Below, in pieces: positions 8,651-9,528 of a DNA stretch of 9,528 nt. Both the position numbers and the translations under genes were made by a program. The notes below the pieces were generated by a model. It was not told the DNA's origin, searched no databases, and worked only from the letters and a program-made list of their open reading frames with translations. Position 1 is the stretch's first letter; every line of letters begins with the position of its first letter. The stretch spans positions 1 to 9,528 of the forward strand of contig JAHIPW010000005.1 of NCBI GenBank assembly GCA_018903055.1. The letters run 5' to 3'. Origin of the DNA: DRGV01 sp018903055 [NCBI: bacterium] (GTDB lineage Bacteria; UBP18; UBA7526).

Positions 8651-8751
8651 TCACAGATTAGCACGGATTGACTGAACTGATTAGCACAGATTTGGTAGTG
8701 ATGAGAATCGGTGCTAATCCGTGTCTTTTAATCTGTGCCCATCCGTGTAAT
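8651..8751. repeat. Interspersed AATCCGTG / AATCTGTG repeat cluster
   Basis: The block upstream of tig contains CACAGATTAGCACGGATT (8652-8669), GATTAGCACAGATTT (8679-8693), GGTGCTAATCCGTGT (8710-8724) and AATCTGTGCCCATCCGTG (about 8730-8747). GATTAGCAC at 8656-8664 and 8679-8687 is complementary to GTGCTAATC at 8711-8719, so alternative hairpins can form in the tig leader. The words resemble, but are not identical to, the CGCAGAT family at the other end of tig. Any tig promoter must lie in or just beyond this block; none is clear. Confidence 0.8.
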
Positions 8752-8773: not shown

Positions 8774-8853
8774 CTTTCACCCCGTTAGAAGTCCCCGATA
8801 AAATCGGGGCATCCGTCCCCTTTAGGGTCGGATTACTTCTAACGGGGCGGGCC
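8774..8853. mobile_element. Small palindromic element, copy A (13-bp arms)
   Basis: A perfect 13-bp inverted repeat, CCCCGTTAGAAGT (8780-8792) and ACTTCTAACGGGG (8835-8847), encloses 42 bases. Inside is a second hairpin, CCCCGAT-AAA-ATCGGGG (8793-8809). The outer ends are CTTTCACCCCG (8774-8784) and CGGGGCGGGCC (8843-8853). Both 11-base ends recur exactly in the element around tRNA-Lys, although the inner arm sequences differ. No coding capacity is present, so any movement would need an enzyme encoded elsewhere. Calling it mobile is inference. Confidence 0.55.
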
Positions 8854-8898
8854 CCCAAGCCGTAAGGCATACGGTCCTAAGCCGTAGCGCCCCGCCCC
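8844..8898. repeat. GC-rich hairpin containing a tRNA-Leu anticodon-arm look-alike
   Basis: GGGGCGGG (8844-8851) pairs with CCCGCCCC (8891-8898). Between them CCGTA (8860-8864), TACGG (8870-8874) and CCGTA (8882-8886) allow two alternative 5-bp hairpins. The second has the 7-base loop TCCTAAG on the plus strand, or CTTAGGA on the minus strand. That is exactly the anticodon loop of the adjacent tRNA-Leu, closed by a different but fully paired stem. Confidence 0.6.
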
Positions 8899-8924
8899 CA
8901 TTTCCCCTACCTTATATTGCATTG

Positions 8925-9006
8925 TGGGCGAGAAAGGACTCGAACCTCCACGGGTTTCCCCACATGGTCCTAAGCCATGCGCGTCTACCAGTTCCGCCAC
9001 TCGCCC
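8925..9006 (-). tRNA. tRNA-Leu(UAG)
   Basis: Read on the minus strand, the acceptor arm GGGCGAG pairs perfectly with CTCGCCC. The anticodon arm is CATGG-CTTAGGA-CCATG (plus strand 8963-8979) with anticodon TAG. A long variable arm (GGGG-AAA-CCC) marks a class II tRNA, and the T-loop is TTCGAGT with a wobble-rich T-stem. The discriminator is A. CCA is not encoded. It decodes CUA and related Leu codons and is the last tRNA before tig. Confidence 0.95.
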
Positions 9007-9033: not shown

Positions 9034-9136
9034 TGGGGCGGGGTAAATCTACCCTGTCTGCCGACAGGCAGGCAATGGAGTTTATCCTGCCCCGATTTAT
9101 CGGGGCGGGGCCACGTCCGCAGATGGCTCGCCATCC
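9034..9136. repeat. GC-rich palindrome block between tRNA-Leu and tRNA-Lys
   Basis: Three compact foldable units lie here. CTGTC-TGCC-GACAG competes with an overlapping CTGCC-GACA-GGCAG hairpin (about 9053-9071). CCCCGAT-TT-ATCGGGG lies at 9090-9105. GATGG-CTCG-CCATC lies at 9122-9135. GGGCGGGGTAAA near 9036-9047 can also pair, with G-U wobbles, to TTTATCCTGCCC at 9081-9092. No open reading frame or RNA gene is visible. Confidence 0.7.
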
Positions 9137-9179: not shown

Positions 9180-9195
9180 TACCCCCACCAGGGCT
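9180..9195 (-). pseudogene. 3' fragment of an interrupted tRNA-Lys
   Basis: On the minus strand this is the 3' side of the T-loop, the T-stem CCTGG, the acceptor strand TGGGGGT and discriminator A, identical to the intact tRNA-Lys. The next three bases (9179-9177) read CCA, unlike the intact copy. It forms the missing end of the 5' fragment at 9309-9361, with the TTCG of the T-loop lost at the junction. Confidence 0.75.
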
Positions 9196-9310
9196 TTCAC
9201 CCCGCACCTTTTAGTACCCCCACCAGGGCTCGAACCTGGGACACCCTGATTAAGAGTCAGGTGCTCTTCCAACTGAGCTATGGGGGCTCAGGAAAGGTGC
9301 GGGGCGGGCC
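9194..9310. mobile_element. Small palindromic element, copy B, enclosing tRNA-Lys
   Basis: A perfect 12-bp inverted repeat, CCCCGCACCTTT (9200-9211) and AAAGGTGCGGGG (9293-9304), surrounds 81 bases that are almost entirely the intact tRNA-Lys. The outer ends CTTTCACCCCG (9194-9204) and CGGGGCGGGCC (9300-9310) match copy A exactly. The element separates the two parts of another tRNA-Lys at its T-loop. Exact borders are ambiguous by a few bases because the element ends and tRNA sequence share letters. Confidence 0.55.
9215..9287 (-). tRNA. tRNA-Lys(CUU), intact copy
   Basis: On the minus strand the acceptor GCCCCCA pairs with TGGGGGT, with a G1-U72 wobble. The D-arm is GCTC...GAGC, and the anticodon arm is CCTGA-CTCTTAA-TCAGG with anticodon CTT. 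The T-arm is CCAGG-TTCGAGC-CCTGG and the discriminator is A. CCA is not encoded. All tRNA elements are complete. It lies in the loop of the 12-bp inverted repeat of copy B. Confidence 0.93.
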
Positions 9311-9361
9311 TGGGACACCCTGATTAAGAGTCAGGTGCTCTTCCAACTGAGCTATGGGGGC
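9309..9361 (-). pseudogene. 5' fragment of an interrupted tRNA-Lys
   Basis: These 53 bases are identical to 9235-9287 and cover the 5' acceptor strand, D-arm, anticodon arm with CTT, variable loop and the 5' strand of the T-stem. The sequence then departs at the T-loop into CCCGCCCC of palindromic element B. The 3' remainder is found 114 bases further on, at 9180-9195. Confidence 0.85.
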
Positions 9362-9383
9362 ATAGTAATCATCCATGCTTTAG

Positions 9384-9457
9384 CGCCTCCGGAGGGAGTC
9401 GAACCCCCAACTTTGTGGTCCGAAGCCACACGCTCTATCCAATTGAGCTACGGAGGC
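9384..9457 (-). tRNA. tRNA-Arg(UCG)
   Basis: On the minus strand the acceptor GCCTCCG pairs perfectly with CGGAGGC. The D-arm is GCTC...GAGC, and the anticodon arm is TGTGG-CTTCGGA-CCACA with anticodon TCG. The T-arm contains GGGGG-TTCGACT-CCCTC and the discriminator is G, as common for tRNA-Arg. CCA is not encoded. It decodes CGA-type Arg codons. Confidence 0.95.
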
Positions 9458-9490
9458 ATTGGGGTGGCTGATCCCGATTTTAATTATTGG

Positions 9491-9528
9491 GGTGAGCGAG
9501 GGGATTCGAACCCCCGGCCACTTGAGCC
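9491..9528 (-). tRNA. Partial tRNA, probably tRNA-His(GUG), cut by the window edge
   Basis: The minus strand shows a T-arm GGGGG-TTCGAAT-CCCCT, acceptor 3' strand CGCTCAC, base 73 = C, and then CCA (9490-9488). Counting back from base 73 places the first visible base at position 36 = G. GGC would end the anticodon loop and TCAAG would be the 3' anticodon stem. C73 and G36 fit tRNA-His with anticodon GTG, which typically pairs C73 with an extra G at -1. The 5' half lies outside the window. A class II tRNA such as Ser, with GGCT/GGCC as a variable arm, is the alternative. Confidence 0.65.

What the first reader, a model, noticed from the sequence alone, without database searches (positions are those of the whole stretch)
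9180..9361. A complete tRNA-Lys nested inside the T-loop of a second, split tRNA-Lys
The outer tRNA-Lys is intact from its 5' end to the T-stem (9309-9361, 53 bases identical to the inner copy) and resumes at 9195-9180 with the rest of the T-loop, T-stem and acceptor. Between the parts lies a 12-bp perfect inverted repeat whose loop contains a complete tRNA-Lys. Only TTCG of the outer T-loop is missing. In RNA the outer T-stem (CCAGG/CCTGG) could still form and continue into the long element stem, giving a tRNA with a second tRNA grafted onto its T-arm. Either a processing intermediate or a frozen duplication/insertion event is possible. The outer copy keeps an encoded CCA, the inner does not, which weakly suggests the outer is older.
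Basis: partly seen in the sequence, partly recalled or inferred. Interest (0 to 1): 0.78.

Follow-up and report, generated by a model that had tools for sequence, protein, structure and literature searches.

The report
Replacement tRNA inside a broken tRNA
In an uncultured bacterium a working lysine-tRNA gene sits inside the broken remains of an older lysine-tRNA gene, apparently one case of a recurrent process in which small mobile DNA elements invade a tRNA gene and leave a substitute copy of the same tRNA.

Summary
The nested tRNA-Lys is real and not a one-off. Three relatives carry one plain tRNA-Lys; G003 shares the 3' flank of the outer copy, so the outer copy is the resident gene. In this genome and five relatives, all 19 enclosing split tRNAs found enclose an intact tRNA for the same amino acid (about 15 separate insertions). 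The cassette's 12-bp arms are the ends of a dispersed inverted-repeat element; a 374-bp copy with the same ends in G003 encodes a GIY-YIG nuclease. Similar nuclease genes lie between a tRNA remnant and an intact tRNA of the same kind at Asn (G004) and Ser (G000). In other genomes, 25 of 69 GIY-YIG loci have an intact tRNA within 600 nt, and in 15 the nuclease separates it from a fragment of the same kind. Best reading: a homing-type element breaks a tRNA gene and supplies a substitute; the Lys cassette is a nuclease-less relic. Cutting and homing are inferred. The outer copy can fold with a tRNA on its T-arm, but is most likely dead.

The parts
9309..9361 (-). outer (resident) tRNA-Lys(CTT), 5' part, positions 1-53
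   Evidence: 53/53 identical to the inner copy and to the single tRNA-Lys of G003, G004 and G005
9305..9308 (-). junction tetramer CCCG
   Evidence: same CCCG/TGAA junctions at the T-loop element of the outer tRNA-Leu in this window; CCTG/TGAA at a D-loop element of tRNA-Val in G000
9293..9304 (-). left arm CCCCGCACCTTT of the cassette
   Evidence: 12 bp perfect inverted repeat; pattern CCCCGCACCTTY has 30 matches in the own genome and 0 for the reversed control
9215..9287 (-). inner complete tRNA-Lys(CTT), no encoded CCA; the only intact tRNA-Lys(CTT) found in this incomplete genome
9200..9211 (-). right arm AAAGGTGCGGGG of the cassette
9196..9199 (-). junction tetramer TGAA
9177..9195 (-). 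outer tRNA-Lys 3' part, positions 58-76 with encoded CCA
   Evidence: 19/19 identical to G003 tRNA-Lys; the 27 nt that follow also match G003
9110..9120 (-). outer tRNA-Leu(TAG) 5' part (positions 1-11) of the second nest
   Evidence: intact gene in G004 and G005
8924..9006 (-). inner tRNA-Leu(TAG), a different allele from the outer one
8852..8886 (-). outer tRNA-Leu(TAG) anticodon and variable region remnant
   Evidence: 97% to positions 28-62 of G005 tRNA-Leu
8780..8847 (-). 68-bp inverted-repeat element (CCCCGTTAGAAGT ends) in the T-loop of the outer tRNA-Leu, flanked by CCCG and TGAA
8760..8775 (-). outer tRNA-Leu(TAG) 3' remnant
   Evidence: 16/16 to positions 67-82

Best explanation
The resident tRNA-Lys gene was interrupted in its T-loop by a small inverted-repeat mobile element that carried a complete tRNA-Lys; the resident copy died and the carried copy is now the working gene, presumably transcribed from the resident promoter. 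This is one case of serial same-tRNA replacement in this group of genomes. Full elements encode a small GIY-YIG nuclease; I infer that it cuts the tRNA gene and that repair copies in the nuclease plus a substitute tRNA (natural break-and-replace), after which the nuclease can be lost but the tRNA cannot. Insertion into any other essential tRNA gene would be lethal, which explains why inner and outer tRNA match. Shown: the nest, empty sites in relatives, the same-tRNA rule, shared element ends, nuclease genes next to tRNA remnants. Inferred: cutting, homing, former presence and loss of a nuclease at this locus, death of the outer copy.
For: Empty site: G003, G004, G005 have one intact tRNA-Lys. 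All 19 enclosing split tRNAs found enclose a tRNA for the same amino acid, 12 of them with the same anticodon as the closest reference of the outer one. At tRNA-Leu the outer pieces match the working gene of G004/G005 while the inner tRNA is a different allele. Arms CCCCGCACCTTT are ends of dispersed elements; 20 of 33 paired element rows from 37 stretches of G000 and G003 have perfect 4-bp direct repeats (10 stretches gave no pair). A 374-bp element with these ends, and an orthologous pair with CCCCGCCCCCATT ends, hold a GIY-YIG gene. GIY-YIG gene between a tRNA remnant and an intact tRNA of the same kind: Asn (G004), Ser (G000). Other genomes: 17 of 40 loci have a tRNA within 600 nt, at 13.8 times the tRNA density of DNA over 2 kb away; ORF between an intact tRNA and a same-strand fragment for the same amino acid in 15 of 69 loci. 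Nine aligned group proteins share ten invariant columns, among them Y, Y-x-G, R, H and E (that these include the catalytic residues is recalled).
Against: No nuclease gene in the Lys cassette itself. Inner and outer Lys are identical where they overlap, so the inner one could be a local duplicate, and nothing explains why it would escape cutting (same at the Cys anticodon arm). Only the 3' flank of G003 matches the outer copy; the 5' flank does not. The 4-bp duplications of dispersed elements are absent at tRNA insertions (CCCG/TGAA, TTCA/CAAG), so tRNA insertion may use another route. 10 of 19 outer copies can be read as a tRNA for the right amino acid by at least one of 961 trial joinings, Lys among them, so not all are provably dead. 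44 of 69 GIY-YIG loci elsewhere have no tRNA within 600 nt. No activity data.
Confidence: 0.6

Rival explanations
1. Plain MITE story: an unlinked transposase moved inverted-repeat elements that happened to have captured tRNA genes; selection kept only same-tRNA insertions. GIY-YIG genes are passengers.
For: Element ends and 4-bp direct repeats look like transposition. The same-tRNA rule follows from lethality alone.
Against: No match to PF01609 or PF01797 transposases in 6 of 6 incomplete genomes (other families not searched). Direct repeats are absent at tRNA insertions. Does not explain the GIY-YIG and tRNA association in other genomes.
Confidence: 0.2
2. The insert is an intron-like or processed segment: the outer tRNA is made functional at RNA level, with the inner tRNA as an extra product.
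For: The transcript folds as tRNA on tRNA, mean acceptor pairing outer-outer 0.96 and inner-inner 0.98. Some joining of the outer halves is read as a tRNA for the right amino acid in 10 of 19 cases, exactly at the fragment ends for Gly in G004.
Against: No intron family in the window (Rfam, E up to 1). TTCG with T54-T55-C56 is lost at Lys. 9 of 19 outer copies give no tRNA for the right amino acid at any of 961 joinings, a permissive test.
Confidence: 0.1
3. Remnant of integration by a tyrosine-recombinase element that uses tRNA genes as attachment sites and restores them.
For: Anticodon loop and T-loop are the usual crossover sites of such integrases (recalled). Duplications of one tRNA half occur beside GIY-YIG genes.
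Against: The insert is 113 nt with no integrase; a complete tRNA lies inside with remnants on both sides, not one restored gene plus one fragment.
Confidence: 0.06
4. Assembly artefact from short reads over repeated tRNA sequence.
For: Assembly in 191 contigs; the window end itself is a fork, its tRNA-His end occurs on two contigs.
Against: The same architecture in several separate genomes, one nest group on a 144-kb contig whose length equals that of a named record, with element-specific linkers.
Confidence: 0.04

Closest known systems
Fungal mitochondrial mobile ORFs (mORFs) in atp6, atp9, cox2, nad3 (PMC3630166, passages seen)
   Same: An endonuclease gene (LAGLIDADG; GIY-YIG in atp9) inserted in an essential gene brings a foreign replacement part; the native part is left behind.
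   Different: Here bacteria, tRNA genes, a whole replacement gene instead of a C-terminal part, inverted-repeat ends, and often no nuclease left.
[quoted passage not shown] that paper itself not seen)
   Same: Nuclease-driven invasion of tRNA anticodon loops.
   Different: Introns splice themselves out; here no intron core was found in the window and a second tRNA does the work.
GIY-YIG-encoding insertions in rRNA genes of CPR bacteria (PMC11270868, passages seen)
   Same: GIY-YIG genes in insertions that match no intron; most insertions lie at tops or bases of stem-loops of a structural RNA gene.
   Different: rRNA, not tRNA; no replacement copy described in the passages seen.
Dada transposons of fish (PMC8869645, passages seen)
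   Same: Insert into the anticodon arm of tRNA genes; flanking target bases can be replaced by other ones.
   Different: Eukaryotic DNA transposons with 6-7-bp duplications that rely on multicopy targets; no rescue tRNA in the passages seen.
Engineered cleave-and-rescue gene drives (recalled, no call)
   Same: Break an essential gene and supply a working copy.
   Different: Artificial; no cutting shown here.

Membership tests
GIY-YIG homing element | encodes a GIY-YIG nuclease | tested here: not met
   Not met in the Lys cassette (no ORF of 60 aa in it). Met in other elements of the group: 9 proteins hit PF01541 at E 7.3e-11 to 1.9e-18; hits to the group I intron endonuclease model TIGR01453 stay below its cut-off.
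GIY-YIG homing element | insertion-free allele of the target exists in relatives | tested here: met
   single intact tRNA-Lys in G003, G004, G005; intact Leu in G004 and G005
GIY-YIG homing element | the nuclease cuts the empty target and the element is copied in | not testable with these tools
   needs a cleavage or homing assay
MITE (terminal inverted repeat element) | terminal inverted repeats shared with dispersed copies | tested here: met
   CCCCGCACCTTY: 11 to 60 matches in each of 6 genomes, 0 for the reversed control
MITE (terminal inverted repeat element) | target-site duplication | tested here: not met
   CCCG/TGAA at Lys; 20 of 33 dispersed element rows do have 4-bp repeats
MITE (terminal inverted repeat element) | autonomous transposase in the genome | tested here: inconclusive
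   PF01609 and PF01797 without match in 6 of 6 genomes; other families not searched, genomes incomplete
tRNA intron (group I, group II or archaeal type) | intron core or splice-compatible exons | tested here: not met
   no Rfam intron in the window; TTCG lost at the junction
tyrosine-recombinase genomic island at a tRNA | integrase gene in the insert | tested here: not met
   113-nt insert without ORF of 60 aa

The most novel reading that the evidence does not exclude
Bacterial tRNA genes are a standing target of a broad class of tiny GIY-YIG break-and-replace elements that need no splicing because they carry or leave a substitute tRNA; in this group (probably candidate phylum UBP18) they have been replacing the tRNA set gene by gene, giving tRNAs nested in tRNAs, at one locus apparently three deep.
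Probability: 0.5. Interest if true: 0.9.

Novelty: new variant of a known kind. Interest (0 to 1): 0.8.

Why it matters
The textbook ways for a homing element to live in an essential gene are self-splicing introns and inteins, or restoring part of the gene (recalled). An element that brings a whole substitute tRNA would be another solution, a natural counterpart of cleave-and-rescue drives. It could explain abrupt replacement of tRNA alleles between close relatives and give a role to the many small orphan GIY-YIG genes of bacteria. It is directly testable in E. coli with cloned tRNA genes.

Tried and rejected
RNA clamp role of the arms: shuffling the 3' arm 60 times lowered the mean inner cloverleaf pair probability only from 0.657 to 0.554, and mixed outer-inner acceptor pairing stayed at zero; weak. 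Joining test: a first run printed three examples per locus and counted any tRNA (13 of 19); the full recount gives the exact anticodon in 9 and the right amino acid in 10 of 19 (six outer copies were labelled by amino acid only). With 961 joinings per locus it is permissive, and it made me raise the splicing rival slightly. Transposase search: PF01609 and PF01797 none. A flank test with 260-nt flanks mixed in remnants of neighbouring nests (35 flanks same isotype, 34 other), so I used enclosing pairs, where overlapping weaker pairs were dropped and pairs needed a summed score of 48 bits and a gap of 10-450 nt. Of these the Thr pair of G004 mixes pieces of two remnants. Control: 82 tRNAs in 34 loci of other genomes gave 8 flanks of 26 or more, 1 of the same isotype (L012 Ser) and one strong foreign one (L153). 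The pattern TTCA-CCCCG..CGGGG-CAAG matched only 3 places in 2 of 6 genomes. PADLOC gave only weak partial hits, among them to homing endonuclease models for one protein. Literature: of which I saw listings plus passages of five papers, showed no account of tRNA nested in tRNA or of tRNA-invading small GIY-YIG elements with a substitute tRNA; the library holds open-licence papers only.

Full report
WHAT IS THERE. On the minus strand the window holds a tRNA-Lys(CTT) whose T-loop is replaced by a cassette: 53 nt of the outer tRNA (9361-9309), CCCG, the arm CCCCGCACCTTT (9304-9293), five nt, a complete tRNA-Lys (9287-9215), CTA, the arm AAAGGTGCGGGG (9211-9200), TGAA, and the rest of the outer tRNA with CCA (9195-9177).

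EMPTY SITE. The genome (G000, 1.09 Mb in 191 contigs, 85% complete) has five held relatives in its family, and these six are all that is held of its phylum. Three of them (G003, G004, G005) have one intact tRNA-Lys, matching the inner copy over 75 of 75 nt, without the arms. In G003 a 46-nt match at 98% covers the last 19 nt of the tRNA and the 27 nt after the outer copy; by eye it goes on to about 9119. The 5' flanks do not match. So the outer copy is the resident gene. A trigger-factor search found a record titled UBP18_UBA7526 at 78% identity over residues 325-437; two other records have the contig lengths of G003:C35 and G004:C8 (CSMAG_2709, CSMAG_2758). The host is therefore probably of candidate phylum UBP18; this is an inference.

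NOT A ONE-OFF. 186 tRNA genes were read from stretches of the six genomes, of 195 Rfam hits. Searching for a 5' and a 3' piece of the same tRNA in order gave 19 pairs; all 19 enclose an intact tRNA for the same amino acid, 12 with the same anticodon as the outer one's closest reference; none encloses only another tRNA or nothing. They are Leu, Lys, Val, Met (G000); Val, Glu, Thr (G001); Arg (G002); Leu, Arg, His, Pro, Arg (G003); Thr, Gly, Arg (G004); Cys, Arg, Glu (G005). Leu is shared by G000 and G003, one Arg by G003, G004 and G005, and Glu by G001 and G005, so I count about 15 separate insertions. The neighbouring tRNA-Leu in the window is one of them: intact in G004 and G005, split in G000 and G003 by an insertion with a different tRNA-Leu allele, and in G000 split once more in the T-loop by a 68-bp element with the same CCCG/TGAA junctions as Lys. 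In G004 a tRNA-Thr lies in a split tRNA-Thr that is followed by the 3' piece of a third; I did not find the 5' piece of the third (my reading of the sequence). At tRNA-Glu one allele is inside the other in G001 and the reverse in G005, with nearly the same arms; in G004 only the 5' side and in G002 only the 3' side of the remnants is left. A control of 82 tRNAs in 34 loci of other genomes gave one same-isotype flank fragment. By the rule, which misses some nests, tRNAs with a same-isotype remnant lack an encoded CCA in 13 of 27 cases, others in 27 of 159 (Fisher P 0.00075); this fits a foreign origin of some inner tRNAs.

THE ELEMENT. CCCCGCACCTTY occurs 11 to 60 times per genome, in the listed rows mostly in facing pairs, and never as the reversed control pattern (the list was cut). 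From 37 stretches of G000 and G003 around such arms, 27 gave 33 paired rows (some overlap), 20 of them flanked by perfect 4-bp direct repeats such as TTCA or TCAA; 10 stretches gave no pair by my rule. Elements in tRNA remnants have unequal tetramers instead. No DDE_Tnp_1 or Y1 transposase matched in the six genomes. A 374-bp element with the same ends in G003, and an orthologous pair with CCCCGCCCCCATT ends in G003 and G004, contain a GIY-YIG gene.

NUCLEASE AT tRNA GENES. In G004 a 12-nt 5' piece of tRNA-Asn (by eye) is followed by a GIY-YIG gene, an intact tRNA-Asn and a 3' piece of the outer tRNA-Asn; G005 has an intact tRNA-Asn of the outer type. In G000 a 35-nt 5' piece of tRNA-Ser(GGA) is followed by a GIY-YIG gene and a different intact tRNA-Ser(GGA), where the contig ends. 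In G004 the same 5' piece with the start of such a gene ends one contig, and the gene with an intact tRNA-Ser begins another. Other GIY-YIG genes lie beside a tRNA-Ala 3' piece, tRNA-Pro and tRNA-Glu. Of the 18 rows I count 11 as small GIY-YIG genes (two may be one gene on two contig ends): 8 at a tRNA or tRNA piece, 3 between arms. I left out 7 rows: five in frames of 164 aa or more, which I took for UvrC and the like without testing, and two weak partial ones.

BEYOND THE GROUP. From a scan of 290 genomes I took the 29 loci returned outside the group and the next 40 rows of the list (leaving out one row of the group; one row beside a returned locus had no locus of its own). 65 of the 69 are in open frames of at most 159 aa. 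Several genomes give two or three loci. Among the 40, 17 have an intact tRNA within 600 nt: 27 tRNAs in 47 kb against 18 in 432 kb further than 2 kb away (13.8 times, binomial P 1.8e-16, with clustered tRNAs not independent), and tRNA fragments of 30 bits or more number 19 near and 5 far (0.5 expected near). Among all 69, 25 have a tRNA within 600 nt and 44 do not; in 15 the nuclease gene lies between an intact tRNA and a same-strand fragment of a tRNA for the same amino acid; 12 further fragments within 600 nt do not fit that arrangement or add to it. L281 is a full nest with the nuclease inside.

MECHANISM. Shown: insertion in tRNA genes, mostly at loops; same-tRNA rule; empty sites; shared ends; nuclease genes at full-length cases. 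Inferred: the nuclease cuts the tRNA gene; repair brings in the element with a substitute; only same-tRNA insertions survive; the nuclease later decays and the substitute stays. With 21 nt between the outer half and the inner tRNA there is little room for a promoter, so the inner tRNA probably uses the outer one's. Unsolved: why the inner Lys and Cys copies would escape cutting, and why junctions differ from those of dispersed elements. That the outer copies are dead is likely, not proven: 10 of 19 can be joined in some way into a tRNA for the right amino acid.

KNOWN OR NEW. The logic resembles fungal mitochondrial mORFs, GIY-YIG insertions in CPR rRNA genes and tRNA-targeting Dada transposons. 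The searches named in Tried and rejected showed no account of nested tRNAs or of tRNA-invading small GIY-YIG elements with a substitute tRNA. In the passages seen of a survey of the GIY-YIG superfamily (PMC1564403) tRNA genes are not named as targets.

Noticed in passing
window 9459-9528 and L044 8015-8120: The contig ends inside a tRNA-His followed by an outer tRNA-His 3' end; the same pair occurs on another contig of the genome, an assembly fork.
   Followed up: partly
L071 692-1462 (G003): A 202-aa ORF with a sub-threshold PIN match sits between a 35-nt 5' piece of tRNA-Glu(CTC) and an intact tRNA-Glu(CTC): perhaps another nuclease-like gene at a tRNA.
   Followed up: partly
L259, L260, L270, L273, L277, L285, L286: tRNA remnants beside GIY-YIG genes in other genomes carry short palindromes in their anticodon or D arms (seen by eye).
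   Followed up: no
L085 756-1103 (G004): The GIY-YIG frame runs into the following tRNA-Asn and stops in its anticodon region.
   Followed up: no
L044 after 6766 (G000): tRNA-Pro(TGG) is followed by what reads by eye like the C-terminus of a tyrosine recombinase.
   Followed up: no
window 8652-8748: Repeats of the type CACAGATTAGCACGGATT between the tRNA-Leu remnants and the trigger-factor gene.
   Followed up: no
window 9214-9287 and 9383-9457, plus strand: Sub-threshold hits to Rfam Plastid-ycf2 are the complements of tRNA genes.
   Followed up: no
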